NCBI GenBank assembly: GCA_019634625.1
Contig: JAHCBA010000022.1
Span: forward strand, 1 to 64,000
Direction: 5' to 3'
DNA length: 64,000 nt
From: Verrucomicrobiia bacterium
Lineage (GTDB): Bacteria; Verrucomicrobiota; Verrucomicrobiia; Limisphaerales; CAIMTB01
Both the position numbers and the translations under genes were made by a program. This document shows, in pieces, positions 20-20,088 of this stretch (position 1 is its first letter; each line of letters starts with the position of its first letter). The notes beneath the pieces were generated by a model. It was not told the origin of the DNA and made no database searches. It saw nothing but the letters and a program-made list of their open reading frames with translations.

Positions 20-3000
20 GTCACCAATGCCTTTCGGCGGTTTGTCCGTGAGGGACGATGCGGAGATGGCTGGACACACCATCGACTGGGAGGTCACCAA
101 TGCCTTTCGGCGGTTTGTCCGTGAGGGACGGGTGGCCTTCGAACTCGGCCTCAACCGGGCCGAACTGGTCACCAATGCCTTTCGGCGGTTTGTCCGTGAG
201 GGACGTTGAGGCCGAGTTCGAAGGCCACCCAGTCCTCAGGGGTCACCAATGCCTTTCGGCGGTTTGTCCGTGAGGGACCGCAGGGTTTAGGCCGACCGCG
301 TAGGCTCCGGCCGACCGTCACCAATGCCTTTCGGCGGTTTGTCCGTGAGGGACTCTCCGGAGTCAGCAAAAGGGAGATAAGCAGGCGGATGTCACCAATG
401 CCTTTCGGCGGTTTGTCCGTGAGGGACGGTATGACCCGAGACGAGTTTGTTGGGCTGGCCAACGTCACCAATGCCTTTCGGCGGTTTGTCCGTGAGGGAC
501 GTCACGCTCCAGTGGGACCCGCATGAGGAGCCTGGTCACCAATGCCTTTCGGCGGTTTGTCCGTGAGGGACGACGTGGACGTGCTGGTGGAGGTGCAGAT
601 CGCCGGCCGTCACCAATGCCTTTCGGCGGTTTGTCCGTGAGGGACCGGCAGCAGCGTCCAGACGTACTTCTGGGCCGTCGCCCGGTCACCAATGCCTTTC
701 GGCGGTTTGTCCGTGAGGGACGGTACCGGGTCGGTAGATCCACCGCTGCCAGCAGATCGTCACCAATGCCTTTCGGCGGTTTGTCCGTGAGGGACACAGT
801 GGAGTAATTATGAATGCTCCATCGCTAACAACAGGTCACCAATGCCTTTCGGCGGTTTGTCCGTGAGGGACCCCCTTTAGCTTCTGTGTAGCTACAGAAG
901 CTAAAGGGGTGTCACCAATGCCTTTCGGCGGTTTGTCCGTGAGGGACGTAGGTTCGGCCGCCAACGGTCCGTTGGGCCGTTTCGAGTCACCAATGCCTTT
1001 CGGCGGTTTGTCCGTGAGGGACCGGCGGAACTCGCTCGGCGAGCTTGTGAGCTTACCGATCGTCACCAATGCCTTTCGGCGGTTTGTCCGTGAGGGACAG
1101 AAGTCCCCTGCTAAGGGGAACAACGCGGCAGTGGGTCACCAATGCCTTTCGGCGGTTTGTCCGTGAGGGACCTCCCATTTCATTCTCCTAAGTCATCCTA
1201 CTGACCCTAGTGTCACCAATGCCTTTCGGCGGTTTGTCCGTGAGGGACACGCAATCAAATGAAGAAACCGAAGAAGTCCCCTGCTAGTCACCAATGCCTT
1301 TCGGCGGTTTGTCCGTGAGGGACGTGGGGACGCGGGCCCACGGCGCATATGCGCCGGGCCCTGTCACCAATGCCTTTCGGCGGTTTGTCCGTGAGGGACT
1401 GGCCACAATATGTCGGTTCAACCGACAACGGTCCGTTGTCACCAATGCCTTTCGGCGGTTTGTCCGTGAGGGACTCCACCGCGAGAGACTGTGTGTGGGG
1501 ACGCGGGCCCACGGTCACCAATGCCTTTCGGCGGTTTGTCCGTGAGGGACGTGTGGTAGCCGCCAGCCCCTCCAATCCCGGGAGACCGTCACCAATGCCT
1601 TTCGGCGGTTTGTCCGTGAGGGACACAACCACCACCAGAAATGGTGAACGTCAGCCTCCGCCGTCACCAATGCCTTTCGGCGGTTTGTCCGTGAGGGACT
1701 CAAACGGTCTCTGAAGGTGTGCCATCGGTGGAGGTCGGCCGTCACCAATGCCTTTCGGCGGTTTGTCCGTGAGGGACCCAGGTCCAGCGCATGCGGCAGT
1801 GGGTGAGGAGGATGACGTCACCAATGCCTTTCGGCGGTTTGTCCGTGAGGGACCTCGGACACCACAAGGAAGGTCACCCCCTCGTTGCTGGCGTCACCAA
1901 TGCCTTTCGGCGGTTTGTCCGTGAGGGACCAACCCTTGGAACCAAGGGTTGCGTCTGCTTCGTCGGGTCACCAATGCCTTTCGGCGGTTTGTCCGTGAGG
2001 GACTTCCGCCACGCAATCGTGGCTCACCGCCGAATCCACCTGTCACCAATGCCTTTCGGCGGTTTGTCCGTGAGGGACGCGAAGAAGAAGAAGAAAGCGC
2101 AGTCCCCCTCGGCCTTGTCACCAATGCCTTTCGGCGGTTTGTCCGTGAGGGACACCGGGGAAGGCTATCGGGGCTTATGTCGCACGACGCGACGTCACCA
2201 ATGCCTTTCGGCGGTTTGTCCGTGAGGGACGAGGACTGCTATGGGTAAGGTGCCGGTCGGGGGACAACAGTCACCAATGCCTTTCGGCGGTTTGTCCGTG
2301 AGGGACTCCCGGCGCCCCGACAGGGGCGCGGTGGTTCGTAACCCGTCACCAATGCCTTTCGGCGGTTTGTCCGTGAGGGACGTGTGGCGAGTGCGGCAAA
2401 CGCCCGGCGGGAACCGGAGTGTCACCAATGCCTTTCGGCGGTTTGTCCGTGAGGGACAGGAACGGCAAGCGGACGGGACGGTGCGGAAAACTTGTCACCA
2501 ATGCCTTTCGGCGGTTTGTCCGTGAGGGACAGTTTGTCCCGGGTTGGGGAACGGTGGAGTAGTTATGGCGTCACCAATGCCTTTCGGCGGTTTGTCCGTG
2601 AGGGACATCACGCCGGTTTACGCGTTCACGAAGCGCGAAAGCGTGTCACCAATGCCTTTCGGCGGTTTGTCCGTGAGGGACGTCCGTTGGGCCGTTTCGA
2701 GCCGCAGGCCCATCCGGACAGTCACCAATGCCTTTCGGCGGTTTGTCCGTGAGGGACACCCCTTTAGCTTCTGTAGCTACAGGAGCTAAAGGGGAGTCAC
2801 CAATGCCTTTCGGCGGTTTGTCCGTGAGGGACTGGTCGCCTTGGTGTTGGGCTACGCCGGGGGAAGCCCGTCACCAATGCCTTTCGGCGGTTTGTCCGTG
2901 AGGGACGTTGCCGGTCGGGGGGACAACAGGGGTGACCCGACCGGGTCACCAATGCCTTTCGGCGGTTTGTCCGTGAGGGACCGCACGACGCGACGGTTCA

Positions 3001-5533
3001 GTTAGCGTCCTCCCGTTGGAGGGTCACCAATGCCTTTCGGCGGTTTGTCCGTGAGGGACCAGGGAGGAGATTCGGCGGTTGCTGACCTTTGACACAGTCA
3101 CCAATGCCTTTCGGCGGTTTGTCCGTGAGGGACGTTGTCACGTTCGTCCTGCCCTCCGGGCAGGACGTTGGTCACCAATGCCTTTCGGCGGTTTGTCCGT
3201 GAGGGACCGGAACAACTGTCACAAGGGGTTATAGAACCAACCCCTGTCACCAATGCCTTTCGGCGGTTTGTCCGTGAGGGACATTACTGGGGGGACGACG
3301 GTGTTTCCCCTTTAGCTTGTCACCAATGCCTTTCGGCGGTTTGTCCGTGAGGGACCCCTGTCCATCCTCCTGATGGTCCTCCAATGACCACGCGTCACCA
3401 ATGCCTTTCGGCGGTTTGTCCGTGAGGGACACGCCAGGTGGCCGCGTTGGTCAACTGCGGCCTGCCCGTCACCAATGCCTTTCGGCGGTTTGTCCGTGAG
3501 GGACCGGCGGTCGGACATCACCGCCCCGGTGGACTGGTCCCGTGTCACCAATGCCTTTCGGCGGTTTGTCCGTGAGGGACCCGGCTGCGTAGCCGGCATG
3601 GTGTTTGGCCACGTCCCACCTGTCACCAATGCCTTTCGGCGGTTTGTCCGTGAGGGACTTCCTAACGTCATCATTACTACTGGGGCGGTGTTTCCCGTCA
3701 CCAATGCCTTTCGGCGGTTTGTCCGTGAGGGACGTCATCCCGCAATCCCGGACGCATCCGGGACGCAATCAGTCACCAATGCCTTTCGGCGGTTTGTCCG
3801 TGAGGGACGGGTGGCATAATGTCATCCCGCAATCCCGGACGCATCCGTCACCAATGCCTTTCGGCGGTTTGTCCGTGAGGGACATCCGGCAACGCCGGAG
3901 CAACTGGCTCAGGGGGTTATAGAGTCACCAATGCCTTTCGGCGGTTTGTCCGTGAGGGACAATGGTTCAATCTCACTCAACATCCGGCAACGCCGGAGGT
4001 CACCAATGCCTTTCGGCGGTTTGTCCGTGAGGGACCCGATTTGAGGGTGACGTGGTCAAGTCGATTCCCCAGGTCACCAATGCCTTTCGGCGGTTTGTCC
4101 GTGAGGGACAGGGTGAAGCGGTGGACACCCTTCCCTCGATGCCCACGGGTCACCAATGCCTTTCGGCGGTTTGTCCGTGAGGGACCCCGCCGGGGCTGAC
4201 CCGGCGGCATACGGCTTCCGTCACCAATGCCTTTCGGCGGTTTGTCCGTGAGGGACGCGGAACCGGAGTACGGGTTGCCAGACGACTTCCTAACGTCACC
4301 AATGCCTTTCGGCGGTTTGTCCGTGAGGGACATCACGCCGGTTTATTCCTTCACTAAGCGCGAAAGCGGTCACCAATGCCTTTCGGCGGTTTGTCCGTGA
4401 GGGACCACTTACTCCGCCTCCCCCGGTGAAGGTGGAGGCAAAGTAGTCACCAATGCCTTTCGGCGGTTTGTCCGTGAGGGACGAGCGCGGTGGTGCGTAA
4501 CCCTTGGTTCCAAGGGTTGCGGTCACCAATGCCTTTCGGCGGTTTGTCCGTGAGGGACATTTCATTCTCCTAAGTCATCCCTCGCGGACCCTAGTGTCAC
4601 CAATGCCTTTCGGCGGTTTGTCCGTGAGGGACCACGGACCTTCGTGTGCCGTGGAGTTCGAGGGTTCCTGTCACCAATGCCTTTCGGCGGTTTGTCCGTG
4701 AGGGACACTTACTGCCGACGGTAAAGTGGTGCCAGCGTTTTCCCGTCACCAATGCCTTTCGGCGGTTTGTCCGTGAGGGACTGCCGGTCGGGGGGACAAC
4801 AGGGGTGACCCGACCGGAAGTCACCAATGCCTTTCGGCGGTTTGTCCGTGAGGGACCCATTGAGGCTGGCAAGGCGGTTGGCGCCTATGTGTCGCGTCAC
4901 CAATGCCTTTCGGCGGTTTGTCCGTGAGGGACTTGCGTATGCTTCGTCGGCAGACTTACTGCCGACGGTAGTCACCAATGCCTTTCGGCGGTTTGTCCGT
5001 GAGGGACCCAGTAGGAGCTAGTATGCTCCTACTGGTTATCGGTCGTCACCAATGCCTTTCGGCGGTTTGTCCGTGAGGGACACTATCGGTCTGGTCTTTA
5101 CCGTCATCCTAGCGGTGACGGTCACCAATGCCTTTCGGCGGTTTGTCCGTGAGGGACCCCATTTCATTTTCCTAAGTCACTCCCTTCGGGGAGTGTCACC
5201 AATGCCTTTCGGCGGTTTGTCCGTGAGGGACGACGCGGTGGACACCCTTCCCTCCGTCCCGATGGGGACGTCACCAATGCCTTTCGGCGGTTTGTCCGTG
5301 AGGGACGATGTGGCGAGTGCGGCAAACGCCCGGCGGGGCCGGAGTGTCACCAATGCCTTTCGGCGGTTTGTCCGTGAGGGACACGTCGCCTACCTGCGCG
5401 ACGGCCACCCCGCAACGCCTCCGTCACCAATGCCTTTCGGCGGTTTGTCCGTGAGGGACCCTCTGCGGGGTCTGGAGGTACCGGCGGGAGGTCGCGGTCA
5501 CCAATGCCTTTCGGCGGTTTGTCCGTGAGGGAC
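20..5533 (-). CRISPR. Type III-B CRISPR array, 74 repeats / 73 spacers (left end cut)
   Basis: Seen directly: a 37-bp repeat, on the plus strand beginning GTCACCAATGCC and ending GTCCGTGAGGGAC, occurs 74 times from 20-56 to 5497-5533 with no variant noticed. The 73 spacers are 34-41 bp, giving a mean unit of 75 bp. Bases 1-19 look like the end of another spacer, so the array probably continues to the left. The array is inferred to be transcribed on the minus strand: cas genes, leader and a promoter lie at its right end, and in that strand the repeat can form a GCC-GAAA-GGC hairpin with a GNRA loop. The newest spacers would then be at the right. Many spacers are related to each other and hairpin-rich (see findings). 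Confidence 0.99.
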
Positions 5534-5769: not shown

Positions 5770-6045
5770 TCAGACGAGGTAGCAGACGACTTTTTCGGAG
5801 CAGACCATGGTTCCGGCGGTGAGGGTTTCGCGGGCACAGCGGGCGTCGATCTTGTAGGCGACGACACGGTCCTCCTCCTCATCGATCTCGTCGAGGAGGG
5901 AGATCCAGAAGTCGGCGAATTCGTCCTCGTCGAGGTGACATTCAAAGATGGAGTACTGGACGCGGACGCCGTAGTCCTCGCAGACGCGGGCGGCACGGGC
6001 GAGGCGTTTGGGGCTGGAGATGTCGTAGGCGACGACGGTGAGCAT
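5770..6045 (-). CDS. cas2: CRISPR-associated endoribonuclease-fold protein Cas2
   Basis: A 91-residue protein with the Cas2 N-terminus MLTVVAYDISSPKR, a ferredoxin-like core and the segment YGVRVQYSIFEC. Cas2 forms the Cas1-Cas2 integrase that inserts spacers at the leader. The start is placed at the ATG at 6045 because it gives the normal family start and length, with AGGGA just upstream. A GTG at 6114, four bases from the cas1 stop, would add 23 residues (beginning NDWWFQAF) with no family match. It follows cas1 in the same operon and is the last gene before the leader. Confidence 0.95.
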   Translation of the reverse strand: MLTVVAYDISSPKRLARAARVCEDYGVRVQYSIFECHLDEDEFADFWISLLDEIDEEEDRVVAYKIDARCARETLTAGTMVCSEKVVCYLV

Positions 6046-6117
6046 GTGTCCCTGGCCTGGGGCGGAGGATTGGTAGGGGACGGCGGGGAAGGCTTGGAAC
6101 CACCAGTCGTTCACGGG

Positions 6118-8140: not shown

Positions 8141-9358
8141 TCAGGGTTGGCTGAGCCGGCGTGCGATCTCGGTGCCGACGAGCACCTCCACATTGAGGAG
8201 GCGACCCCATTTTTCGAATTGTTCGGGCTGGTTGTTACCGGCCTCCAGCACGGCAAGGGTTGCTTTGGCGTGGGAACCGCCGAGATCGCGGCGGCGCTGC
8301 GAAAGGGCGGTCAGGTGTTCGAGGGCCTGCTTGGGGCTTGTCTTGCAGGAGATGATGCGAAGGGCGGCATGGGCGGTGTCCACACAGACCAGATCGGTTT
8401 CGCCGAAACTGGCCTCGGCCGAACCGCTTGGCTCGACGCTCCAGTGGGGATCGAGGAATCGGGGGTGGGCACGTTGAAGGAGGTCCAGGGTGTAGAGTTC
8501 GAGCCAGGAACCACCGAGCAGGTTGGCGACGCGCTGAACATCCCCGCGCGTGGGCTGGCACCCGGGCAGAAACTCCCCCTGGTGATTGCGTTGGAGCAGG
8601 CCTGCCGACTCGGCGGCCTTGAGGAAGGCGAGGACGGGTTCCGAAGGGGGGGTGGGGAGCGGGGACTCCAGCAGGGATTGAAGGGCGCTCCGCTTCGATG
8701 GCACGCTCCCATTTTCGGAGCGGAAGTGTGCTCGAAGCGACTCACCGTACGTTTTTCCGGATGCGGGCAGTTTATCGCGGAATGCGGAGCGGTGGTGGAT
8801 ATGGAGTTCAAAGGCGATCCGACCGAATTCGGTGAGTGCTGCGGAGGCGGTCTGGAATTTCCAATGGCTGATGGGTATGCCATGCGCCGCCATGACGGTC
8901 TCGACGTTCAAGGTCGTCGCGACGTCGTCGAAGGCAGGGAGGCTGGGCAGAGGCTGGCGGTCATTCATCGAGGTGAAACGCCTCTGATGAGTGTCGCAGT
9001 ACAGCACGGGCCGCCCTTCGGACTGTGCTGCAAGGAACGCCCCGATTGCCATGGGCTTGGTGCCTCCGGTGAGATTCACCACGGCCTGCGGCCAGGGTGC
9101 CAGGGCTTCACCGACAGCGCGACGGGAGCTGTCAACGCCGGGTGTTGCCTCGCCGATGTCCCAGTCGCGGAATTCGGGGTTGAGGTCATGGAACCCTGGT
9201 TGTTTGCGCATCGCGATGACGGCGGCCTTGAGGTCCTCCGCGGCCTGGCGAAACCGCTCGTCGCTGCTGCGAACCTGGATGACGAGGGACGGTCGCATGG
9301 CAAGCAAGGGAAGGAGGTTCTGCATGGTTTGCTGGCTGACCAGGTGCAGAAGGGTCAT
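8141..9358 (-). CDS. Can2/Card1-like CARF-nuclease effector (copy 1)
   Basis: 405 residues. The N-terminal CARF domain has LLHLVSQQTMQNLLPLL at the start and NLTGGTKPMAIGAF at 95-108, the ligand-binding loop of the DUF1887 family. The C-terminal PD-(D/E)XK-like domain has GGSWLE (282-287), ETD (320-322) and ISCKT (336-340). Known Can2/Card1 proteins are switched on by cyclic tetra-adenylate and cut nucleic acid. Here the Glu of the usual E-x-K is Ser337, which may lower or shift activity. Start chosen at ATG 9358, where family similarity begins; upstream sequence is a repeat element. A paralogue lies at 10973-12214. Confidence 0.88.
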   Translation of the reverse strand: MTLLHLVSQQTMQNLLPLLAMRPSLVIQVRSSDERFRQAAEDLKAAVIAMRKQPGFHDLNPEFRDWDIGEATPGVDSSRRAVGEALAPWPQAVVNLTGGTKPMAIGAFLAAQSEGRPVLYCDTHQRRFTSMNDRQPLPSLPAFDDVATTLNVETVMAAHGIPISHWKFQTASAALTEFGRIAFELHIHHRSAFRDKLPASGKTYGESLRAHFRSENGSVPSKRSALQSLLESPLPTPPSEPVLAFLKAAESAGLLQRNHQGEFLPGCQPTRGDVQRVANLLGGSWLELYTLDLLQRAHPRFLDPHWSVEPSGSAEASFGETDLVCVDTAHAALRIISCKTSPKQALEHLTALSQRRRDLGGSHAKATLAVLEAGNNQPEQFEKWGRLLNVEVLVGTEIARRLSQP

Positions 9359-9425
9359 GGGAGGGGAGGTTCCGGGCTTGAGTCGCGATCGGTCAAGGAG
9401 CCACCTGCCAGGGGCGGTGAACGCC

Positions 9426-9584
9426 GTGCATTCCGGAGTTGTGGGGAGAGCTGCGAACTTCGCCAGGCATCGCTTCGGAGGGCCGAGTTCCACGAGGCCG
9501 CAACGGTGTGGAGCGTTGGGTTGAGGACTCGCGGAGCTCGTCCCTCCGATTCGCTGCCTCCTCACCCACAACTTCGGGATGCAC
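9426..9584. repeat. 159-bp interspersed repeat with terminal inverted repeats (copy 1)
   Basis: The ends are near-perfect inverted repeats: GTGCATTCCGGAGTTGTGGG at the left and CCCACAACTTCGGGATGCAC at the right (18 of 20 matching). The same element occurs at 32735-32893 and 51270-51429. All three share the core GACTCGCGGAGCTCGTCCCT. It encodes no transposase, so it resembles a MITE or REP-type element. Here it sits inside the cas locus, between the first Can2-like gene and the four-helix-bundle gene. Confidence 0.88.
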
Positions 9585-9647
9585 CGTGGTGAACGGGGAA
9601 AGTCCAGCGGTCGGGAATGTGTGCGGGGGGCCTTGGCGGTGGGATGA

Positions 9648-9753
9648 TCTGCGACCCCTGTCGGGGTCGCACCGGGGATGACGCGGCACCGGGGGTCGGA
9701 CCGGGCTGAACCGGTCCGACCCCCGGCTAATGTCTGGAAACCCTGCGGGTTTC
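9648..9753. repeat. 106-bp palindromic interspersed repeat (copy 1)
   Basis: The element has two hairpins, GCGACCCC..GGGGTCGC and GGGGTCGGACC..GGTCCGACCCC, followed by CGGCTAATGTCTGGAAACCC. A second copy lies at 31185-31293, with compensating differences in the stems. It ends just before the four-helix-bundle gene stop. Function unknown; REP-like. Confidence 0.8.
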
Positions 9754-9761
9754 GCCGGAGC

Positions 9762-10565
9762 TCATGCGGGGAGGGTGTGTTTGCAGTCGGGGTAGCTGGG
9801 GCAGCCCCAGAACGGGTTTCCGGCATGGGGGCCGGAGCGGGCGGTGCGGAGGACCATGGGTTGATGGCAGCGCGGGCAGGTGGGGGAGGGAGGGGACGGA
9901 TGGGGCGGATCGGACGGATGGCTGCCGGGATGACGGCGGCGCTGGCGTTCGGCGAGGCGGGCGGTGGCGAGTTGTTCGCGGTAGCCGCCGTCCTCGATGA
10001 AGGCGCGTTCGAGGGCGGAGAGTTGCCGGTCGAGCAGGTAGTTGGCCTGGTGGATCAGGCAGATGATCGCGTTGGCGCGGACGACCGGGTCGGCATGGTC
10101 GAGCCAGGGGGCGTAGAGGGTCCAGCGTTGGGAGTCGGTCTGGGGGGGCGGATGGGACGGATCGGACGGATCGGACGGATTGCCCCGCCTGGCGATGGCT
10201 CGGACGGCCTGGGCTTCGGGGGAGTTGGGAGGCCAGAGGGGCAGGTGGCGGTGGCGGAGGTAATCCTCGAAGTCGAGCAGGAGTTCTTCGAGGCTGGCGC
10301 GGGCGACGTTGAGAAGGCGCAGTTCGGTCTGGGTGGAGGTGGCGGCGGCGCGGCTGCCTTCGGCGATGTTCTGGCGGCCGCTGCGGGCGGCCTGAACCAT
10401 CTGGTCCACGGTGCGGGAGCGCGAATCGAGGAACTTTTCGCAGAACCACCAGGTGGCGTCGTAGATGAGGGTGGTGGTCTGGAAACTGGCGGTGCCCCGG
10501 TAGCCGCCGGCGGGACGGAGGCGCTGGCGGGATGGGGGGGTGGATTCCGAGGGGGCGGGGTTCAT
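9762..10565 (-). CDS. Four-helix-bundle protein with C-terminal topoisomerase-type zinc finger
   Basis: 267 residues. Residues ~25-200 carry the four-helix-bundle signature WWFCEKFLDSRSRTVDQMVQ, AARSGRQNIAEGS and LEELLLDFEDYLR, a family distantly related to 23S rRNA intervening-sequence proteins and Avd. A low-complexity PSDPSDPSHPPP stretch interrupts it. The C-terminus has a C4 zinc finger as in topoisomerase I: CPRCHQPMVL then FWGCPSYPDCKH. The start overlaps the smr-like stop by 4 bp (ATGA), so the two are translationally coupled. Its function here is unknown; nucleic-acid binding is likely from the zinc finger. Confidence 0.82.
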   Translation of the reverse strand: MNPAPSESTPPSRQRLRPAGGYRGTASFQTTTLIYDATWWFCEKFLDSRSRTVDQMVQAARSGRQNIAEGSRAAATSTQTELRLLNVARASLEELLLDFEDYLRHRHLPLWPPNSPEAQAVRAIARRGNPSDPSDPSHPPPQTDSQRWTLYAPWLDHADPVVRANAIICLIHQANYLLDRQLSALERAFIEDGGYREQLATARLAERQRRRHPGSHPSDPPHPSPPSPTCPRCHQPMVLRTARSGPHAGNPFWGCPSYPDCKHTLPA

Positions 10566-10972: not shown

Positions 10973-12214
10973 TCAGGCGAATGGGTCGGGCTGCTGGAGA
11001 TCGAGAGGGAAGAGAAGGCGGACGCCGAGGGCTTCGGCGCGGGTCTGGAGGTTCTTCAGGTGGGGATCCTTGGGCGGATGGCATACGGCGAGGAAGCGCC
11101 GGTTGAAGGTGCCGCCCAGGGTCCGGGCCCGGGCGGTGATTTCTTCAAGGAGGGGCAGGAGGCGGCTCTTGTGCCCGCCGCGTTTGCAGGCGATGCAGGT
11201 GACCTGGACACCGTCGAGGGCGACGATGTCCTCCTCGAGATCGGCCCCGCCCTTTTCGCCGACCTGGACGGACCAGCGGAGGTCGCGGAAACGTCCGGAG
11301 GCGTGGGCGCGGGAGGCGAGGATAATCTCCCACCAGCCGCCGGTGAGCCTCGAGATCGATTGCTGGAGGGGGGCGATCGCTTCGAACAGGCGGGAGCGGA
11401 AGTTGGGCAGGCGGCGATGGCCGGCGGCGGCCAGGGCTTCGAGTTCGGTGCGGGAGGCCGAAGGGAGGCGCGCGGTGCCGTTGACGTGCCCAGGTTCCAG
11501 GATGCCGGAGTCGAGGGCGAGGCGTTGGACCGTACTGGGGAGGGTGAAATCAAGATCGAGGCATTGCAGCCAGTCGCCGGGCGTGCGGGGTTCGCGTCCA
11601 TGGGGAAAAAGTCCATTGGGTCCATGGAGAGCCAGGTGGGTGGCCTGCTCGTCGGCTGGGTTCGCGAGGAGGTGTTCGGCGAGGGGCAGGTGGGGACGCC
11701 AGTCGCGGCCACCCGTCACCCGGTCACACCCATTGGCGCAGGCGATGGCGTGAACGGTCAGGGTGCGAAGGATGGGGGTGAAGCTGAGGTCCCCGTCGAA
11801 GACTTCGTCGAGACCGGGTCCGGTGCGGCCATCCATGAAGGTGGCGTCCTGGGTATCGACGTAGAGGGAGGGGATTTGGTCCTTGAGGGCGGCGGCGTAG
11901 GCTCCGATGGACATGAGCTTGGTGCCGCCGGTGAAGTTGACGAAGGGGCGGCGCCCGGCGGCGGTTTCCTCGGCGATCACGGACCGCACCGCGTCGTGGG
12001 TCTCCTTGATGGAGGGCATGGCGGCGAGGGGAAGGGTCTCGAGGTCCACCGGGCAGTTGGACCGGCGGGCGGCCTCGGCAATGCGGGCGGAGCGGTCCCG
12101 GGTCTTCGGGGTGGCGAGGTGGACGAGGCGGACGGGCCGGAGACGAAGGACCGGCAGGAGGTTCTGCATGGTCTGCTCGGAGACGAGCTGGATGAGGGTG
12201 AGGGGGGTGGGCAT
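10973..12214 (-). CDS. Can2/Card1-like CARF-nuclease effector (copy 2)
   Basis: 413 residues. CARF domain: LIQLVSEQTMQNLLPVL near the N-terminus and FVNFTGGTKLMSIGAYAAAL at 91-110. C-terminal PD-(D/E)XK-like nuclease: GGWWE (292-296), EED (327-329) and CIACK (340-344). As in copy 1, the Glu expected before Cys-Lys is missing, here Ala342. It is clearly a paralogue of copy 1, but they have diverged and so are not a recent duplication. It lies 109 bp downstream of cmr1. It is predicted to respond to cyclic oligoadenylate made by Cas10. Confidence 0.88.
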   Translation of the reverse strand: MPTPLTLIQLVSEQTMQNLLPVLRLRPVRLVHLATPKTRDRSARIAEAARRSNCPVDLETLPLAAMPSIKETHDAVRSVIAEETAAGRRPFVNFTGGTKLMSIGAYAAALKDQIPSLYVDTQDATFMDGRTGPGLDEVFDGDLSFTPILRTLTVHAIACANGCDRVTGGRDWRPHLPLAEHLLANPADEQATHLALHGPNGLFPHGREPRTPGDWLQCLDLDFTLPSTVQRLALDSGILEPGHVNGTARLPSASRTELEALAAAGHRRLPNFRSRLFEAIAPLQQSISRLTGGWWEIILASRAHASGRFRDLRWSVQVGEKGGADLEEDIVALDGVQVTCIACKRGGHKSRLLPLLEEITARARTLGGTFNRRFLAVCHPPKDPHLKNLQTRAEALGVRLLFPLDLQQPDPFA

Positions 12215-12323: not shown

Positions 12324-13121
12324 TTAGATCAGGTTCCAGGTCTCGGGGTTGGATCTGTGGCCATGGAGACACTTCCTTGCCTCCTCAAGAACACGGTGGT
12401 CTGGCGCGAAGGCCAGCAGGCGCAACCCCATCTCAAAGCGGACAACCTTGAACTTCAGGGCAGACGCGACCCGATTCCGTCCCCTGGCGCAACCGAACAC
12501 CCAATCAGGTCCGTTGACCGTGTCGGTGGCCGCCGCTCGCAGTTCCTCGATGTTCGACCCAACCCTCTCGCCAACGAGCATCACAGGCCAACGGCATCCG
12601 AGTTGATCGAGGCGGGAACGAAGCGCCGCCGGAGTCTTTGGAGCCGTGTCGTCCGCGGGCCAGACGTTACCGCCGGAACGATTGGCCCGGAGGCCCAGCG
12701 CCCCGAGAAGCAGCCACACTTCGAGGGCCGACTCCGCTCTTGCGAGAAGTTCGGCCGGAAGCGGCTCGAAGCGGTCCTGTACGTGGAGATCAAACTGGAT
12801 CCCGGGTCGGAAAGCCGCTTGAGGGCTTGCCCGCCCGCCGCTCTTGTGGGGGAGGGTTGGCAATTTGGCTGAGGGATAAGCCAACTGATCACTGCGAATC
12901 CGAAAGACCAGTCGGGAGGCCATTACGTCGGGGCAAGCAGGTCCTCCGAATCCCTTCATTCCGCCAAAGAGTTGCTTCTCCTCGTGCGGTTTGCCGCCCA
13001 ACCAGCGGAACCACCAACGAACCATGCCCCGGACGGACGGAACGCGGATCTCAGGTGAGTCCTGGTACGCGCCGCGATTGAACAGCGGGGTTAGAACCTC
13101 GATTCGGCGATGCCAGTTCAT
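12324..13121 (-). CDS. cmr1: Type III-B RAMP protein Cmr1
   Basis: 265 residues. Cmr1 caps the target-end of the Cmr complex near the 3' end of crRNA. Family hallmarks: RIEVLTPLFNRGAYQDSPEI at the N-terminus, VPSVRGMVRWWFRWLGG, and EKQLFGG. It is shorter than many Cmr1 proteins (often 300 or more), but both ends look complete. The start is 3 bp after the cmr6 stop. It is the last Cmr subunit in the run cas10-cmr3-cmr4-cmr5-cmr6-cmr1. Confidence 0.93.
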   Translation of the reverse strand: MNWHRRIEVLTPLFNRGAYQDSPEIRVPSVRGMVRWWFRWLGGKPHEEKQLFGGMKGFGGPACPDVMASRLVFRIRSDQLAYPSAKLPTLPHKSGGRASPQAAFRPGIQFDLHVQDRFEPLPAELLARAESALEVWLLLGALGLRANRSGGNVWPADDTAPKTPAALRSRLDQLGCRWPVMLVGERVGSNIEELRAAATDTVNGPDWVFGCARGRNRVASALKFKVVRFEMGLRLLAFAPDHRVLEEARKCLHGHRSNPETWNLI

Positions 13122-13124
13122 GCT

Positions 13125-14465
13125 TCAGGTCAGTGTAAAGCCAAGCCGTGCCAGGATATTCCTGCCGGCGTCGCCAAATTTGCCGCTGGTGAAAGCCTGC
13201 CAGTAGGGATGATTCCTGCGATTCCTGCGCCGCTCGTTCTCGGGAACCACGGCTTCAAAGGCACGTCTCAACTCGGCATCGTCGGAAATCGCAGCCAATT
13301 CGGGCAACGCAACCGGGAAGTTGTCCTTGGTGTTCAACCTGGAACGCCACTTCAGGATGAAGGCATCCGCTGGAGACAGGTCCGACTTGGTCGAGGTCGG
13401 CGGAGCGGACACAAGGGCCTTGGTCTGTCTGGCGCACGGTTCGAACCAGCCATAGCCGGCGGCGGTTTTTGCTCCCAGGCCCTTCTGAGACAGGGCGGAG
13501 TCGATCCACCTTCTGGCCTGGTCGAGAATGTCGCCCGTGTTGAGTCCGATGCCGGCCGGGACGGATCGATTGATCAGCACGGCGAAGCCAAAGGTTCCAC
13601 CTTCCTTGACCGCGGGGAAGTAGTTTGGGACTGGAGACTCGTTGTCATCAGCCCTGGAGCGCCTGCCTCCGTAATACTCCGGATAGTGCGGATTGACCAT
13701 ATCAAGGACGATTTCCGGACAATTGGTGGGATAGGCTGGAAGGAAGGAGGCGCAGCCCTTCAAGTCGCCGTTCCCGAACTCCATGGCGACCGCGGCAGCA
13801 TCTCCGGGGCCGCCCGCCCAAGCGAAGTCGCCCTTGGGTTTGATGTCATTGGCGGAGAAGCCGAACAGCAGCAACGCAACCTTCAGCAAGCGGGTTCGGT
13901 CCTCCGGATTCGCGTTTCGTATCTCCCAAAGAGCCTGAGAGCGGGTGATCCCCTTCACAGCGGACCCTGGAATAAGCGGAAGGCCGAAGCAACGGTCGAG
14001 GGAGATGCCGGCGTTTTCAACCACACCCCCGGCCAGATTCAATATGAGTCGGGAAGCGAGGGTGGCCTCGAACGTAATGACGTTGTCACCGTATGTTGTG
14101 CGGAGGTCTGCAAGGAAGCGAGCGGCATTCTGATTGACGGCGCGAATGAGCTCGGAGTCAGCCCTGGCGATCCTGCCCATATTCGAAGCGACATCAGCAT
14201 CCCGCTGCTTACGGTCACGGACAGAAGGCGTGACGGATTCCCCCCGTGACTCACGGTCGAGGCGGGAGGCGTCCTTCTGCAACAGATCACCCCCACGCCT
14301 GACGATACGCAGGAGGCTCCAGCGGCCGGCTTCATTCAGCTTCTCATCCGGCTTGCCAACCCATTTCTTGGGCAGGGCGAACTTCTCGTAGAGCAGGGAG
14401 CGGTTGTCGACCTGATCCGCCCAATCGCCGACCAGTTCAGCGACATCAGGACTCATTGGAATCAT
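13125..14465 (-). CDS. cmr6: Type III-B RAMP protein Cmr6
   Basis: 446 residues, RAMP fold. Diagnostic stretch: LAGGVVENAGISLDRCFG followed by LPLIPGSAVKGITR, the Cmr6 glycine-rich motif. A C-terminal extension of about 90 residues after GLGAKTAAGYGWFE goes beyond the usual core. Cmr6 sits with Cmr1 at the 3'-crRNA end of the complex. Two starts are possible, ATG 14465 or ATG 14456; both overlap the cmr5 end (20 or 11 bp), which suggests coupled translation. Confidence 0.93.
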   Translation of the reverse strand: MIPMSPDVAELVGDWADQVDNRSLLYEKFALPKKWVGKPDEKLNEAGRWSLLRIVRRGGDLLQKDASRLDRESRGESVTPSVRDRKQRDADVASNMGRIARADSELIRAVNQNAARFLADLRTTYGDNVITFEATLASRLILNLAGGVVENAGISLDRCFGLPLIPGSAVKGITRSQALWEIRNANPEDRTRLLKVALLLFGFSANDIKPKGDFAWAGGPGDAAAVAMEFGNGDLKGCASFLPAYPTNCPEIVLDMVNPHYPEYYGGRRSRADDNESPVPNYFPAVKEGGTFGFAVLINRSVPAGIGLNTGDILDQARRWIDSALSQKGLGAKTAAGYGWFEPCARQTKALVSAPPTSTKSDLSPADAFILKWRSRLNTKDNFPVALPELAAISDDAELRRAFEAVVPENERRRNRRNHPYWQAFTSGKFGDAGRNILARLGFTLT

Positions 14466-14850
14466 GGTGAATCTCCTCGTTGGCGGGTTTCTTCACGAAG
14501 CGCCGGGCGTAGCATAGCCAGGCAAGGGCCTCGGACGTGGCATCCTTGAGTTTCAAGCTGTCGCCCTCCCTGGAGAGGTATTCAAGCAGGTGCTCCAGCG
14601 TTTTCTTATCGGACGGCAGGACAGCAATGTCCGCATGGGATAAATGGATGGCAATGTGGTCGAAGCAGACATACCAACCCTCGCCCTCACCTTTGGAGTA
14701 GGCGAAGGCTCCAGCGGCAAGAAGCCCATTGGACATGACAAGTGCCGGGAGCTTCTTGACAACCTCCCCGCCGTTGGTGCCGCGTGTTTTCTGGGCGGCG
14801 TTGGCATAGATGAGGGCGTTGGTCGCCCGAACCTGTTCGAGATTCTTCAT
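14446..14850 (-). CDS. cmr5: Type III-B small subunit Cmr5
   Basis: 134 residues, helical. Cmr5 copies line the target-RNA groove of the Cmr filament. MKNLEQVRATNALIYANAA and VKKLPALVMSNGLLAAGAF fit the family (Cmr5 characteristically has a KxLPxxIxxNGL-like run). ATG 14850 is chosen over 14868 because it matches the normal start, has AAGG upstream, and begins 14 bp after the cmr4 stop. Confidence 0.93.
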   Translation of the reverse strand: MKNLEQVRATNALIYANAAQKTRGTNGGEVVKKLPALVMSNGLLAAGAFAYSKGEGEGWYVCFDHIAIHLSHADIAVLPSDKKTLEHLLEYLSREGDSLKLKDATSEALAWLCYARRFVKKPANEEIHHDSNES

Positions 14851-14864
14851 AAAGCAGGACCTTA

Positions 14865-15734
14865 TCAAGCGAGCCTTACGGAGCAGAAGCCAAGACCCGT
14901 TGTGCCATCGCCTCCGAACTGAAGGACCGGCTTGGATTCGAGAAGCCGGGTCAGATCAGACATTTCGCCTTTGGCGCGAGCAAGGGGTGTGATTGGGAGA
15001 AAGAAGAGTGTTTCTGCCGGGACGGCTTCGTTATTGAATAGAAAACCGCCCTGGGCGGTGCCGGTCCTAGGATCAATCTTGACGTGCTGGCTGACTTCGC
15101 AGGCATTCCGAACGAAGTGGGCGAAGTCCCCCTCATTCAGGAGAACGAGGCGTCCCTTGGCCAGGGCCCAGACGGGATCATCCATCAGGGACAGGAGCAG
15201 ATCCTGCCATTCGTTTGGGAATTTGCCAGACGGGTCCGGGGGTCGATTGAAGCGGTATTCCTCGAGAATGACACCTGTCCTGGAGTCCCGCTTGATGGTC
15301 ACGGAATCTCCCGCGAGGCACTGCATTTCGGCAGGTTCGATGGGAGGGAGTGTGGGCACCACAGGCCGCTTGTCTGGTTCTTGAGTCGGGACGTGTGATA
15401 ATTCGCGACGAAGGCGTTCGAGGGCCAATGGACAGGTAATGAACGCGAAGGAGCCCTTTGCGGAACGTACCGGGAAGGCGATGATCTTGGCCTCACCGAA
15501 GGTGATGCGCCCGGCTTCGTCCTGTTCACCAAAGATGGCTTTTTCCCTATCTGCGAACCTGGGGTCCTGCCTGCATACATCACGAAGGACACCCTTGATG
15601 CTGGTGCCTGGGATGACGGGAAACCCCGTATGCCGTTCGCGGATGATGGGTTGGTCGATGGCGCCGACGCTGGCGCCGGCGCCGACGTGGAGCGGGGTTC
15701 GGGTGAAGATGTAGAGGATGCGTTTGTCGGTCAT
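14865..15734 (-). CDS. cmr4: Type III-B backbone RNase Cmr4
   Basis: 289 residues. Cmr4 forms the repeated backbone that cuts target RNA every 6 nt. N-terminus: LYIFTRTPLHVGAGASVGAI, then PVIPGTSIKGVLRD, the RAMP ligand loop; C-terminus GGDGTTGLGFC. In this family an Asp in the N-terminal loop is catalytic; QPIIRERHTGFP lies where that loop is expected, and the Asp of GAIDQP is a candidate. It starts 51 bp after the cmr3 stop. Confidence 0.95.
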   Translation of the reverse strand: MTDKRILYIFTRTPLHVGAGASVGAIDQPIIRERHTGFPVIPGTSIKGVLRDVCRQDPRFADREKAIFGEQDEAGRITFGEAKIIAFPVRSAKGSFAFITCPLALERLRRELSHVPTQEPDKRPVVPTLPPIEPAEMQCLAGDSVTIKRDSRTGVILEEYRFNRPPDPSGKFPNEWQDLLLSLMDDPVWALAKGRLVLLNEGDFAHFVRNACEVSQHVKIDPRTGTAQGGFLFNNEAVPAETLFFLPITPLARAKGEMSDLTRLLESKPVLQFGGDGTTGLGFCSVRLA

Positions 15735-15785
15735 GGTGAGTTTGTAATGGGTGGTTGGGGAAATGGTGTGAATTTGGACGTCCGG

Positions 15786-17264
15786 TTACGTCCCGAGGAA
15801 CTTCCAGGTGCCGCAGACGCCGAGGCCGAAGCCCTTTTCACCCATCAGCGTGCTGCGGCGGTTGCACAGGGTGGTGAAGGAGGTGTCGGATCCGTGCCAG
15901 TTGAGTGCGGCGGCGAGGTTGTCGGCGTCGGCTTCGGTGTCGGCCTCGAAGTAGAACACGGCACCGGCGGGAACGGCGAGGTGGGTGGATTTGGCGCCGC
16001 CTTCGAAGCAATTGGCCGCATTGGGAAGGGCCCAGCCCGTGACCGGAAGCGGTTTGGGCACGATGGCGGCGACCAGGCGGGCGGAAAGAGGCGCCTCCCT
16101 CTCGGCGACGCGTCGGATTCTGGTTCCGGTGTAGTCGCGATGGCGGCGACCGGAGCGGAGCTTGAGGAGGACCTGGCCGTTGCGCTCGTTCGGGCGCGAT
16201 TGGCGGGCTTCGGTGTCCCAATCGACGAATATCCAGTTGGGCAACCAGCCGCCGGGATGGGGATGGATGGTTTCGCCGCTCCTGGAGGTGGCGCCGACAA
16301 TCTCGGGCCAGATGGCGGGCGTGAGCAGGATCCATTTCACGAGCCAGCACTTCGAGTCCGCCGAATGCGCCGTGTTGAATTCGGACCGCATGCCCTTCGG
16401 CAATGGGAGCGGGTCGGTCACATCGGTGCGGGACGCCGTGCAGATGCGCTGCTGACCACCCACGACGATCTGGCGAGGGGATCCGTTGAGCAGTTCCTGG
16501 ATGAGGTCGCGGGGCTGGTCCTGGGAGCCGTTGGACTTGTCGATGGCCTGGGCGAAGAGGCCCATGCGGCACTCTTCGCGGAGACGGAGATAGTGAGCGG
16601 AGTAGATCTGACCTTCGGCAGCACCCCGGCCGGTGGTGCCGGAAGCGGGATCGATCCCGATGCCGATGCGGTGCTCGGTATCGGCGAGGTCGGTGTCACG
16701 GAGGAAGAAATGCGGTTCCGGGCCGGACTGTTCGCGGAGGTAGGCCTCGAAGGCGGCTGTGGAGATCCACGCTTCGGCTCCGGTGCTCTTGGTTGGCGGT
16801 TGAGTATTGGCCACGCCGTACCGCAGGGGCCGGGGGAGACTGGAGCTTTGCCAGGCTGCGTCGCGATCCATTCCCGGGAGGGAGGACACCGGGAGGTGGG
16901 TGACGGCGACGCTGTTGGCGAGTTGAGAGTCCTTCGGACGGGGAAAGTACCAGGTATGGATGGCGTTGCGGGGAGGTTTGGAGGCTGCGGCCGGTTCGGC
17001 GATTCTCACGGGAAAGGGGCCGGCTGTAAGGAGGGAGCCGAACTGGCGGTCACGCTGGTCCAGGTACTCACCGGAGCGCCCCTGGCGATGGCGATGCGTT
17101 CCTACGAGTTCCGCGCGGTGCAGTGCGGCGTGGAGGGCATGGTTGGGGATGTCGGGGAGCGGCCAGGCGGCGGAATGGCCGGCGAGGGAGCCTGACATGG
17201 GGCGTCCGTCGCGGAAGAACAGGACGTCCGTGGGCTGCAGGAGGATCTGGTGGAGGTTGTTCAT
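15786..17264 (-). CDS. cmr3: Type III-B RAMP protein Cmr3
   Basis: 492 residues. Cmr3 binds the 5' tag of crRNA and contacts Cas10. Hallmarks: ILLQPTDVLFFRDGRPM at the N-terminus, FPVRI and HTWYFPRPKD, and the C-terminal MGEKGFGLGVCGTWKFLG. ATG 17264 is chosen because family similarity begins there, with AAGGA upstream; the in-frame extension to 17345 encodes only Pro/Arg-rich residues. It starts 22 bp after the cas10 stop. Confidence 0.94.
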   Translation of the reverse strand: MNNLHQILLQPTDVLFFRDGRPMSGSLAGHSAAWPLPDIPNHALHAALHRAELVGTHRHRQGRSGEYLDQRDRQFGSLLTAGPFPVRIAEPAAASKPPRNAIHTWYFPRPKDSQLANSVAVTHLPVSSLPGMDRDAAWQSSSLPRPLRYGVANTQPPTKSTGAEAWISTAAFEAYLREQSGPEPHFFLRDTDLADTEHRIGIGIDPASGTTGRGAAEGQIYSAHYLRLREECRMGLFAQAIDKSNGSQDQPRDLIQELLNGSPRQIVVGGQQRICTASRTDVTDPLPLPKGMRSEFNTAHSADSKCWLVKWILLTPAIWPEIVGATSRSGETIHPHPGGWLPNWIFVDWDTEARQSRPNERNGQVLLKLRSGRRHRDYTGTRIRRVAEREAPLSARLVAAIVPKPLPVTGWALPNAANCFEGGAKSTHLAVPAGAVFYFEADTEADADNLAAALNWHGSDTSFTTLCNRRSTLMGEKGFGLGVCGTWKFLGT

Positions 17265-17286
17265 GGGGAGAGAAGTCCTTGGGGGA

Positions 17287-20088
17287 TCAGTCCTGGGAGG
17301 TTCGGTGAGCGAAGGCGGCCGTCTGGCAGAGACCGATGAGGGCATCGATCCTGGCGGCTGCGTCGGGCAGCAAGGGCGAATTGAGATAGCCGAGGATCCT
17401 GTTCCGGATCTCCTCGGCTTCTTCTGGAGAATACTTCGTTCCGCGCTGGCGATCGATGGCGGTGTCGATGTCGTGTCGAAGGATCTGGCCGACGAGAGGT
17501 TCGAAGCTGTCCGTCGGCCGCGTGCGACCCAGCGACTTATTGCGGTCAGTCCGATAGCCCTCGACCAGGGCGACGATACGATGGGGGAACTTCGCGCTGA
17601 CTACTTCGTCATTCATTCCGTTGATGACCGCGGCCAGTGCGTCGAGCCCTGTGCTCTCCCACTTGCAGCCCCATTGGATCGTCTCGCCGGAACGTTTCAT
17701 GAGCGTGACCGCAACGGCACTGCGGTCGAGTTCCCGCTTTTCTTTTGCACGCTTCTCGGCGCGTTGGGCCTCGCGCACGACGTCCTGGAGGGGGGATTTG
17801 AAGTGGGCGATGGCGACACCGACCGAGCAGTCGGCTTCTGGACCGGGGACGAGGAAGGGAATCGGGTGAGTGCGCCCATCGTGAAGGGTCATCGAGGTCA
17901 GGAAGCCCGGGACTGGGCTGGAGAACAGCGGTCTCCCGTCCGCATCCAGGACTTGGTTTCCCTGAAAGGCCATCCGCAGGGCTTGGGCACACGGCAGGGC
18001 GGTGTCGGCGGGCAACATGGCCACCACGTCGTCGCCTCCGGCGTAGATGAGGCGCCCGTCGAAGGCCTCCACAATTGGGCGGGCGCAGTACAGGGCGAAA
18101 TTGCTGAGGCATTCGCTGAATTGGAGATGATAACTGGGGGAAACCAGGCGGCGGGTGTCTAGCAGTCTGGCGAAGCGATCCTGGAGCATGCCCTGGCCGT
18201 CGGGGTTGCTGTTGCGAGTGAAGTACTCGATGGCTGCGGTGTCTTGATCGCCGTAGGTGGCTAAGACAGATCGATAAGCGGGTGTCTTCTCGCCCGAAAC
18301 CCACTTGCCAATCTGGTCGCCGTCGAGTGCGAGCACGGCGAAGTACCTGCCGGAGCCTTCCTTGTTCGAGTCGGATTCACCTTGGTCTTCGGCTGCGTCG
18401 GTGAACGACTCATGGTCCGCCAGCATGCGCGTGTCGGGCATGGGGAACCGGTCGCGCCTTGTCTGCAGTTTCCACTTGTCCGCGAGCCATGACGTGTGCC
18501 AGACGCGCTTGACCAACGTGATGGCGCCGACGGGATCGTCGTGCTTGAAGAGATTGGGCCAGTCTCCTGGCAGTTCCTCTACACTTTTGGAAAACCCTGT
18601 GCCTCCGAACAGCATTTCCTCCTTCCCGGTCAGGCCATCCTTGGTTTGGGCGACGCCGGATTCGTTCCATCCCCCGGATTTCCAGGCGGTGAAATCCCGG
18701 GTTTGGCGGACGGCATCGAGGCACCAGCCGTTGACGGCCGTGAGGAGGGCCCAGGCGAGGCCGGTATTGGCGAGTTCATCCTTCGGGCCGGCGTCGCCAC
18801 CGATGTAGAAGCGACCGTCGCGGTGGTCCATGGGCATGTCTTGCCTGGCCGCGCTGACCACGGCATCGAAGCGTTCGAGGAGGGTCTTCTCCCCGTTCGC
18901 GTGCGTTGCCGCGGGAAGCTGTGCCGCGAGGGCGCGGGCGCCGGACAGCGACTCGGGCCAGGGAAGGGCTTGCCAGGCGATGCTCAGGAAGCGCTGGGTA
19001 TGGTCATCGAACCTTTTCCTGGCGTCGATGCGGGCCAGACCCGGGGGAAGGAAGTTCAGGAGGGCTGACGGCTCGACCTTGCTCCATACGGACTGGCAGA
19101 TGGCATGCCATTCGTCCCGGATGGTGCGGTCCACGAGATGGCCCAGCTCGTTGGCGCGGTCGGCCGGAACGACAGCGAGGAAGACATTGGGAAGATTGGG
19201 GGTGAGGAGGTCGAGGTCCGGATTGTCGATGTGGGAGCCTTGTTTGGAGCGCTTGGCGCGCTCGGAGGCGTCACAACGCAGGGACTCCCATACAGAGGCA
19301 CTCCCGATGTGGACCTTGCTCCACAGGTCGCCTCGCCAATGAAGGTCGAAGAGCGGCTGATTCCTGAGGTTCGGAAAAACCACCGCATCCGGCCCGACTT
19401 CGGCTGAGAGGGCCTTCAATCCGGCGGCCATGAGCCATGAGAGGAGGTAACTGCCGCTCCAGAGATCGCGGGTACTGCGGGCGGCGGCGATGAACTCTTG
19501 AACGGGGCCGAGTTGGAACTTGAGGAAGGCGGGTTGCCAGCGCTTATCAGCGCCAATGCAGCCGGAGAGAGCCGACACCACCTGCATGTGGGTCCAGATG
19601 GTGTGGTCGGGGATGCGGGTATCCGCCGGAAGAAACCCGAGTCTGTAGTCGTGTTCCATGGCGCGCTGGGGCCAGAGACGCCAGTGGGCAAAGAAGCGGG
19701 CACGCCATCGTTCATCGTCGTCTTTCAATGAGGAGAGCGACTCGGCTGTGAGCACTGGTTGGACACTGTTCTCGCCGTCCAGCGCCTCCTCGACGGCCTT
19801 GAACTCGGCATGGAAGGGAAGTCTCGCGCCGGACAGCGGATGCAGGAACGTATTTCGGATGCCATCGAAGGCGCACTGAAGGCCGGCTGCCTGGGACTTG
19901 GGGAACGGAAAGCGATCGGCCGCGGCAGCGGTGTGATCGGCATGGGCGAGGTATTCCCCAATCTCTGTGTCGGTGAACCCGGCCTGCCTGAAGGCGGCCT
20001 TGGACCGTTCCCGGTGCGTGGCGATGTCCAGGCACTTGCTGGGTGGATCGTGGAGGTAGGCGGCGAGCTTCTCTTGCCAGTAGTTCAT
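17287..20088 (-). CDS. cas10: Cas10/Cmr2, cyclic oligoadenylate synthase of the Cmr complex
   Basis: 933 residues, the signature type III subunit. An HD pair is present at His13-Asp14 (AAYLHDPPSK) with HADHTAAAADRFPF further on, so ssDNA cleavage is possible. The second Palm domain keeps LIYAGGDDVVAMLP with GGDD at 684-687, and the first Palm region has VLALDGDQIGKWVSG. Intact GGDD means target RNA should trigger synthesis of cyclic oligoadenylates, matching the CARF proteins encoded nearby. A C-terminal helical domain follows. The start is 11 bp after the CARF-wHTH stop. Confidence 0.97.
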   Translation of the reverse strand: MNYWQEKLAAYLHDPPSKCLDIATHRERSKAAFRQAGFTDTEIGEYLAHADHTAAAADRFPFPKSQAAGLQCAFDGIRNTFLHPLSGARLPFHAEFKAVEEALDGENSVQPVLTAESLSSLKDDDERWRARFFAHWRLWPQRAMEHDYRLGFLPADTRIPDHTIWTHMQVVSALSGCIGADKRWQPAFLKFQLGPVQEFIAAARSTRDLWSGSYLLSWLMAAGLKALSAEVGPDAVVFPNLRNQPLFDLHWRGDLWSKVHIGSASVWESLRCDASERAKRSKQGSHIDNPDLDLLTPNLPNVFLAVVPADRANELGHLVDRTIRDEWHAICQSVWSKVEPSALLNFLPPGLARIDARKRFDDHTQRFLSIAWQALPWPESLSGARALAAQLPAATHANGEKTLLERFDAVVSAARQDMPMDHRDGRFYIGGDAGPKDELANTGLAWALLTAVNGWCLDAVRQTRDFTAWKSGGWNESGVAQTKDGLTGKEEMLFGGTGFSKSVEELPGDWPNLFKHDDPVGAITLVKRVWHTSWLADKWKLQTRRDRFPMPDTRMLADHESFTDAAEDQGESDSNKEGSGRYFAVLALDGDQIGKWVSGEKTPAYRSVLATYGDQDTAAIEYFTRNSNPDGQGMLQDRFARLLDTRRLVSPSYHLQFSECLSNFALYCARPIVEAFDGRLIYAGGDDVVAMLPADTALPCAQALRMAFQGNQVLDADGRPLFSSPVPGFLTSMTLHDGRTHPIPFLVPGPEADCSVGVAIAHFKSPLQDVVREAQRAEKRAKEKRELDRSAVAVTLMKRSGETIQWGCKWESTGLDALAAVINGMNDEVVSAKFPHRIVALVEGYRTDRNKSLGRTRPTDSFEPLVGQILRHDIDTAIDRQRGTKYSPEEAEEIRNRILGYLNSPLLPDAAARIDALIGLCQTAAFAHRTSQD

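What the first reader, a model, noticed from the sequence alone, without database searches (positions are those of the whole stretch)
796..5345. Over half of the spacers are overlapping or diverged copies of one another, in the same strand and reading frame
Seen in the sequence: I grouped 42 of 73 spacers into 13 families. Examples: spacers at 2307, 4483, 1930, 4933 and 4707 tile one frame reading ARWFVT, ARWCVTLGSKGC, TLGTKGCVCFV, CVCFVGRLTADG, LTADGKVVPAFS. Those at 2607 and 4332 read ITPVYAFTKRES and ITPVYSFTKRES. Those at 2154 and 4857 read GKAIGAYVA and GKAVGAYVS. Those at 4110, 5232 and 4036 read GEAVDTLPSMPT, DAVDTLPSVPMG and GDVVKSIPQ. Differences are mostly synonymous or conservative, so the sources are diverged relatives under protein-level selection. 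In 12 families all members lie in one orientation, sense on plus, so minus-strand crRNAs would be antisense to the coding RNA. This amounts to a partial, multi-variant assembly of the enemy genome kept inside one array. Inference: repeated immunisation against a small, fast-diversifying phage family, plausibly ssRNA phages (Leviviricetes).
Basis: partly seen in the sequence, partly recalled or inferred. Interest (0 to 1): 0.97.

Follow-up and report, generated by a model that had tools for sequence, protein, structure and literature searches.

The report
CRISPR array saturated against one phage
A bacterial immune memory array stores about sixty overlapping snippets, nearly all in one orientation, from a stretch of only about 4,000 bases belonging to a family of related phages; that stretch includes a phage gene that probably switches off this very kind of immunity, and the invader is most likely a DNA phage, not an RNA phage as first thought.

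Summary
The array (20-5533) has 74 identical repeats and 73 spacers. About 41 spacers fall into about 13 overlapping or diverged families, all in one orientation, with substitutions concentrated at third codon positions. One family was mis-assigned: spacer 4036 pairs with 4633, not with 4110/5232.

The RNA-phage reading is not supported. Seven spacers tile one gene, a csx20-like gene (Csx20 is a cA4 ring nuclease), found in more than 100 DNA-phage contigs; all lie on the plus strand at 19-30 bits, against a shuffled maximum of 16.6. The adaptation module has no reverse transcriptase, nor does the 97%-complete genome. Leviviricete replicase profiles find nothing. The spacers are hairpin-rich like RNA phages, but so are the csx20 regions of DNA phages.

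Best explanation: an RT-less type III-B system was repeatedly immunised from a roughly 3-6 kb, probably early, one-strand region of diverging csx20-carrying dsDNA phages. Only spacers whose crRNA is antisense to early mRNA survived selection, as shown in Thermus and Staphylococcus. The exact phage was not found, so "early" and "dsDNA" remain inferences.

The parts
20..5533 (-). CRISPR array: 74 identical 37-nt repeats, 73 spacers; begins 20 nt from the contig end, so probably truncated; crRNA strand inferred to be minus
   Evidence: direction from cas2/cas1 at the high-coordinate end and the repeat end ATTGGTGAC on minus (inference)
796..5345 (+). Zone of spacers s11-s71 holding all one-orientation overlapping/diverged families; fits a source of about 4 kb
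3961..3998 (+). s53, csx20 N-terminus (WFNLTQHPATPE), 91-93% nt identity over 30-33 nt to viral contigs L011/L018
   Evidence: 30.4 bits
3884..3923 (+). s52, csx20 (PATPEQLAQGVI), overlaps s53 by 17 nt
   Evidence: (24.1 bits)
3208..3245 (+). s43, csx20 (EQLSQGVIEPTP), diverged variant of s52
   Evidence: (19.3 bits)
3060..3096 (+). s41, csx20 (REEIRRLLTFDT)
   Evidence: 18.7 bits
2607..2644 (+). s35, csx20 (ITPVYAFTKRES)
   Evidence: 29.7 bits
4332..4368 (+). s58, csx20 (ITPVYSFTKRES), diverged variant of s35
   Evidence: (27.5 bits)
2458..2493 (+). s33, csx20 (ERQADGTVRKT)
   Evidence: 20.9 bits
428..463 (+). s6, older zone: aligns in one register with the gene overlapping the csx20 stop codon in L020/L023/L024/L025 (MTRDEFVGLA vs MTRDEVVAWA)
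   Evidence: 25/36 nt; null maximum 24
2307..2344 (+). s31, first member of the five-spacer chain PGAPTGARW[FC]VTLG[ST]KGCVCFVGRLTADGKVVPAFS (with s60 4483, s26 1930, s66 4933, s63 4707)
   Evidence: no database match
872..910 (.). s12, long palindrome right after the stop codon of chain s32/s57/s49/s44; variant at 2758 (s37)
130..241 (.). s2 and s3 overlap by 26 nt in opposite orientation: in the older zone both strands of a source were sampled, as expected for double-stranded DNA
5770..6114 (-). cas2
   Evidence: Pfam PF09827
6118..7209 (-). cas1, no RT fusion
   Evidence: Pfam PF01867
7224..8210 (-). HNH endonuclease gene between cas1 and the effectors
8141..9826 (-). CARF-PDDEXK (Card1/Can2-like) effector
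   Evidence: true start uncertain
10973..12214 (-). second CARF-PDDEXK (Card1-like) effector
12324..17345 (-). cmr1, cmr6, cmr5, cmr4, cmr3
17287..20088 (-). cas10/cmr2 with a GGDD motif (18028-18039), the cOA synthase
20100..21599 (-). Csm6/Csx1 NE0113-type CARF protein

Best explanation
A conventional, RT-less type III-B (Cmr) CRISPR system with cA4-type signalling parts was immunised again and again by a family of diverging phages carrying a csx20-like gene. Cas1-Cas2 captured DNA. Cells survived only when the crRNA was antisense to an abundantly and early transcribed phage RNA, so the retained spacers lie on one strand and in one region of about 3-6 kb of small, co-directional, hairpin-rich genes, one of which is csx20. 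Several phage lineages contributed, so the array holds overlapping and synonymously diverged versions of the same genes. The phage Csx20-like protein probably degrades cA4 and so blunts the Card1/Csm6-type response; this may explain why immunity had to be renewed so often. Shown: the array, the families, the orientation, seven csx20 spacers, the lack of RT, the cas gene content. Inferred: that all families come from one phage type, that the region is early, that selection made the strand bias, that the viral Csx20 is active, and that it drove re-immunisation.
For: Seven plus-strand spacers match a profile of 80 viral Csx20-like proteins at 18.7-30.4 bits, against a maximum of 16.6 in 584 shuffled spacers. 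One more, s6, fits the gene just downstream of csx20 in the same register in four contigs. The csx20 loci are in IMG/VR phage contigs with phage ParB and helicase genes. Seven of the 61 zone spacers hit a gene of about 390 nt, agreeing with the source size of about 4 kb from overlap density. No RT. Direct precedent: in Thermus, RT-less type III spacers acquired from phage phiFa concentrate in one early region and on one strand because of selection (PMC7515739); in Staphylococcus, type III-A spacers kept after infection mostly target the early transcript (PMC11708336). Csx20 is a verified cA4 ring nuclease and occurs in phages (PMC12409355); the locus carries GGDD Cas10 and Card1-like effectors. 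csx20 regions of DNA phages are hairpin-rich like the spacers.
Against: No contig containing the actual protospacers was found in phages, plasmids, viral contigs or relatives; only csx20 and weakly s6 are identified, so about 53 zone spacers rest on overlap, orientation and size alone. Hairpin content of the spacers (mean z -1.2) exceeds that of most csx20 neighbourhoods (mean -0.5), and is reached only in the best 4-kb windows. Timing of expression is unknown. The viral Csx20-like proteins score below the NCBIfam cut-off (29-42 against 70 bits).
Confidence: 0.75

Rival explanations
1. The source is a small ssRNA phage (Leviviricetes-like) or other RNA replicon of about 4 kb, which moreover encodes a Csx20-like protein, acquired through RNA without a cas1-linked RT.
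For: One strand, about 4 kb, start and stop codons, hairpin-rich spacers (mean z -1.2) nearer MS2/Qbeta (-0.73/-0.83) than phiX174 (-0.21) or average dsDNA phage (-0.05); none of its non-csx20 contigs matches DNA phages.
Against: csx20 is known only in DNA phages, plasmids and cells; no csx20 in leviviricetes; no RT in the locus or genome; no replicase match where 2-6 are expected; GC 61% against 44-52%; csx20 DNA regions are hairpin-rich too.
Confidence: 0.05
2. The source is a small DNA element of about 4-5 kb (ssDNA phage, phage satellite or small multicopy plasmid) with all genes on one strand and csx20 among them.
For: The overlap density alone fits a whole genome of about 4 kb; one orientation fits a one-strand element; palindromes could be replication or terminator hairpins.
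Against: csx20 is seen on phage contigs of mostly 10-85 kb and plasmids of 90 kb or more, with no small element among the hits inspected; phiX174 is not hairpin-rich; s6 matches a csx20 neighbour of larger phage contigs.
Confidence: 0.15
3. Strand and positional bias come from the adaptation machinery itself (transcription-coupled or free-end capture) rather than from survivor selection.
For: The possibility of transcription-dependent acquisition is discussed for type III-A (PMC11708336).
Against: In Thermus the unselected unique spacers show no strand bias (PMC7515739); here s2/s3 come from opposite strands.
Confidence: 0.12

Closest known systems
Type III spacer acquisition in Thermus thermophilus against phage phiFa (Artamonova et al. 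2020, PMC7515739)
   Same: RT-less adaptation, crRNAs complementary to transcripts, hot region of a few kb at the early end, bias from selection
   Different: There a laboratory infection; here a natural single array of about 60 such spacers holding several diverged phage variants
Staphylococcal type III-A early-operon spacer retention (Aviram et al. 2024, PMC11708336)
   Same: Spacers mostly antisense to the early transcript
   Different: Type III-A with Csm6, plasmid-borne; here III-B with Card1-like effectors and a phage-borne csx20
RT-Cas1 type III systems that capture RNA (PMC5513706)
   Same: Type III, one-strand spacers could suggest RNA capture
   Different: No RT in the locus or genome here
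Csx20 ring nuclease family (NCBIfam NF040559; PMC12409355)
   Same: The seven spacers encode the conserved motifs of this family as found in phages
   Different: The viral branch scores below the curated cut-off and has not been assayed
AcrIII-1 / Crn2 viral ring nuclease
   Same: A phage-borne enzyme predicted to remove cA4
   Different: Different protein family; anti-CRISPR activity of phage Csx20 is untested

Membership tests
Type III-B CRISPR-Cas | cas10/cmr2 plus cmr1, cmr3-cmr6 | tested here: met
Type III-B CRISPR-Cas | cOA signalling: GGDD palm and CARF effectors | tested here: met
   GGDD at 18028-18039; CARF-PDDEXK and Csm6-type proteins
RT-Cas1 RNA-capturing system | Reverse transcriptase fused or adjacent to cas1 | tested here: not met
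   Cas1 363 aa, Cas_Cas1 only; no RVT_1 in genome, control genomes ring
Target = Leviviricetes | RdRp (replicase) sequence among the spacers | tested here: not met
   0 of 61 above 17 bits, 2-6 expected; power moderate
Target = Leviviricetes | Coat and maturation proteins among the spacers | tested here: inconclusive
   these proteins are too variable for 12-residue pieces
Target = csx20-carrying DNA phage | csx20-like coding sequence among the spacers | tested here: met
   seven spacers
Target = csx20-carrying DNA phage | Virion, terminase or other hallmark genes among the spacers, or a whole matching genome | tested here: inconclusive
   no match for other contigs
Csx20 ring nuclease (viral branch) | Membership by curated HMM | tested here: inconclusive
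   E 1e-6 to 1e-10 but 29-42 bits against a cut-off of 70
Csx20 ring nuclease (viral branch) | CARF-like fold | tested here: inconclusive
   AF2 pLDDT 91.7; CARF/SAVED proteins recur over the whole chain, Cam1 Z 5.7, Csm6 5.0, Sso2081 4.5, but unrelated folds reach 6.9
Csx20 ring nuclease (viral branch) | cA4 cleavage | not testable with these tools
   needs an assay

The most novel reading that the evidence does not exclude
The source is a hairpin-rich RNA phage of about 4 kb that carries its own csx20 ring nuclease, recorded in DNA by a type III system without a dedicated reverse transcriptase.
Probability: 0.04. Interest if true: 0.97.

Novelty: new member of a known kind. Interest (0 to 1): 0.6.

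Why it matters
It looks like a natural record of what laboratory work predicts: type III immunity keeps only spacers antisense to a small, probably early phage region. It shows this at unusual depth, with some sixty spacers and several phage lineages in one array. Part of the targeted region is a phage gene for a probable cA4 ring nuclease, facing a host whose defence appears to rely on cA4-type effectors. That links a suspected counter-defence gene to its defence partner by sequence evidence and makes the arms race directly testable. It also warns that one-strand, hairpin-rich, small-source spacer sets need not mean RNA phages. csx20 is not favoured over the rest of the region: 7 of 61 spacers for about a tenth of its length.

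Tried and rejected
RNA phage: tested by leviviricete profiles with held-out power check, csx20 search in leviviricetes, RT search and GC; rejected as the leading reading. Hairpin content as evidence for RNA: at first convincing, then explained by csx20 regions of DNA phages. Direct search for the phage: peptide contigs by tblastn in phages and plasmids, degenerate patterns in viral contigs, DNA in 97 relatives; no true match. Pfam/PHROGs on the peptide contigs: nothing. csx20 in 388 genomes of the phylum and in the own genome: none. Same repeat in relatives: none. Conserved neighbours of csx20 as further targets: no convincing family beyond csx20. PDB sequence search with the Csx20 profile: none.
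Full report
What is there. The window begins inside a CRISPR array at 20-5533 with 74 identical 37-nt repeats and 73 spacers. The same repeat occurs nowhere else in the 6.74-Mb genome nor in 57 relatives. At the high-coordinate end follow cas2, cas1, an HNH gene, two CARF-PDDEXK (Card1/Can2-like) genes, a full cmr set, cas10 with GGDD, and a Csm6/NE0113-type CARF protein, all on minus. This is a type III-B system with the parts for cyclic oligoadenylate signalling. cas1 carries no reverse transcriptase, and no RVT_1 protein is found in the genome, which is 97% complete, while control genomes respond. With cas2/cas1 next to the high end, the newest spacers should be those near 5460, and crRNAs should read from minus (inference).

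The observation. Ungapped all-against-all comparison finds 22 same-orientation pairs at a score where shuffled spacers give 0.2. I count about 41 spacers in about 13 families, all between 796 and 5345, all in one orientation; the only clear opposite pair is s2/s3 in the older part. In the assigned frames substitutions fall at codon positions 1/2/3 as 16/6/33. Simulation shows that 61 spacers with 24 overlapping pairs fit a source of about 4 kb on one strand, 3-6 kb plausible.

What the spacers come from. One overlap chain (s53-s52-s43) hit viral contigs, and the ORF there also contained the sequence of another family (ITPVY[A/S]FTKRES). The ORF belongs to the Csx20 family by NCBIfam, below the curated cut-off. 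A profile from 80 viral homologues picks exactly seven spacers, all on plus, at 18.7-30.4 bits; 584 shuffled spacers reach 16.6 at most. A further spacer in the older zone, s6, aligns in the same register with the gene that overlaps the csx20 stop codon in four contigs, 25/36 bases at best, null maximum 24; this is suggestive only. The predicted structure of the viral protein is confident (pLDDT 91.7), and CARF/SAVED proteins recur among structural matches along its whole length, but at Z values that unrelated folds also reach.

Is it an RNA phage? Spacers s11-s71 are unusually hairpin-rich (mean z -1.2, 36% below -1.5), beyond MS2 and Qbeta (-0.73, -0.83) and far from phiX174 (-0.21), average csx20-phage contig DNA (-0.05) and host DNA (-0.01). 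That argued for RNA. But the regions around csx20 in DNA phages average -0.50, and single 4-kb windows reach -1.2 to -1.4. Replicase profiles from 12 leviviricetes score none of the 61 spacers above 17 bits, while 61 random pieces of a held-out leviviricete give 2-6 such hits. csx20 is absent from those leviviricetes and their GC is lower. With no RT and a gene otherwise known from DNA elements, an RNA source is unlikely, though the actual source genome remains unseen.

Mechanism. Laboratory work explains the pattern without RNA capture. In Thermus thermophilus an RT-less type III system acquires from both strands without selection, but after infection by phiFa nearly all spacers are complementary to transcripts of a narrow early region, because only those protect (PMC7515739). 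In Staphylococcus, spacers kept after infection mostly match the early transcript (PMC11708336). Here the same selection, applied again and again by diverging relatives of one phage type, would yield the observed array. Csx20 degrades cA4 in vitro, and a few sequenced phages carry it (PMC12409355). A phage Csx20 would act against the cA4-dependent effectors expected here. I infer, and have not shown, that this partial escape is why the array kept growing. csx20 is not over-represented among the spacers relative to its share of the region.

Limits. The matching phage genome was not found in any collection open to me, so only the csx20 part of the target is identified. That all families derive from the same phage type rests on orientation, overlap density and zone. 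Early expression is inferred. The array is truncated by the contig end.

Side finding. Six csx20-carrying viral contigs contain 14 hammerhead-ribozyme-like motifs, all on the coding strand and all upstream of csx20, those inspected each followed by a small hairpin, a ribosome-binding site and a start codon; shuffled sequence gives none. They fall below Rfam's gathering score. None is visible in the spacers.

Noticed in passing
L020 1635-1694 and 2769-2829; L023 1723, 2467; L024 4425, 5174; L025 196, 836; L037 6081; L049 5692, 5961, 6300, 6622, 6969: Fourteen hammerhead-ribozyme-like motifs (three stems, CUGANGA and GAAA core, NUH site) on the plus strand upstream of csx20 in six viral contigs, zero in shuffles; in L020 and L049 each is followed by a GCGG/CCGC hairpin, RBS and ATG of a small gene, suggesting early mRNAs cut into single-gene units. 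Rfam Hammerhead_1 scores 23 bits, below its cut-off of 34.
   Followed up: partly
window 20-463 (s1-s6): In the oldest visible spacers, s2 and s3 overlap in opposite orientation, unlike the later zone, while s6 may target the gene next to csx20.
   Followed up: partly
window 7224-8210: An HNH endonuclease gene sits between cas1 and the CARF effectors, in the same direction; its role in the locus is unknown.
   Followed up: no
window 10562-10900: A small Smr-domain protein is encoded between the two CARF-nuclease genes.
   Followed up: no
spacers s11-s71 and the 12 others: Spacers outside the family zone also tend to be more structured than host DNA (mean z about -0.7 to -0.8, n=12); a general preference of this adaptation module for hairpin-forming DNA is not excluded.
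   Followed up: partly
window 5460-5496 and 5383-5422: The two leader-proximal spacers (s72, s73) belong to no family, so the run against this source seems to have ended before the most recent acquisitions.
   Followed up: no
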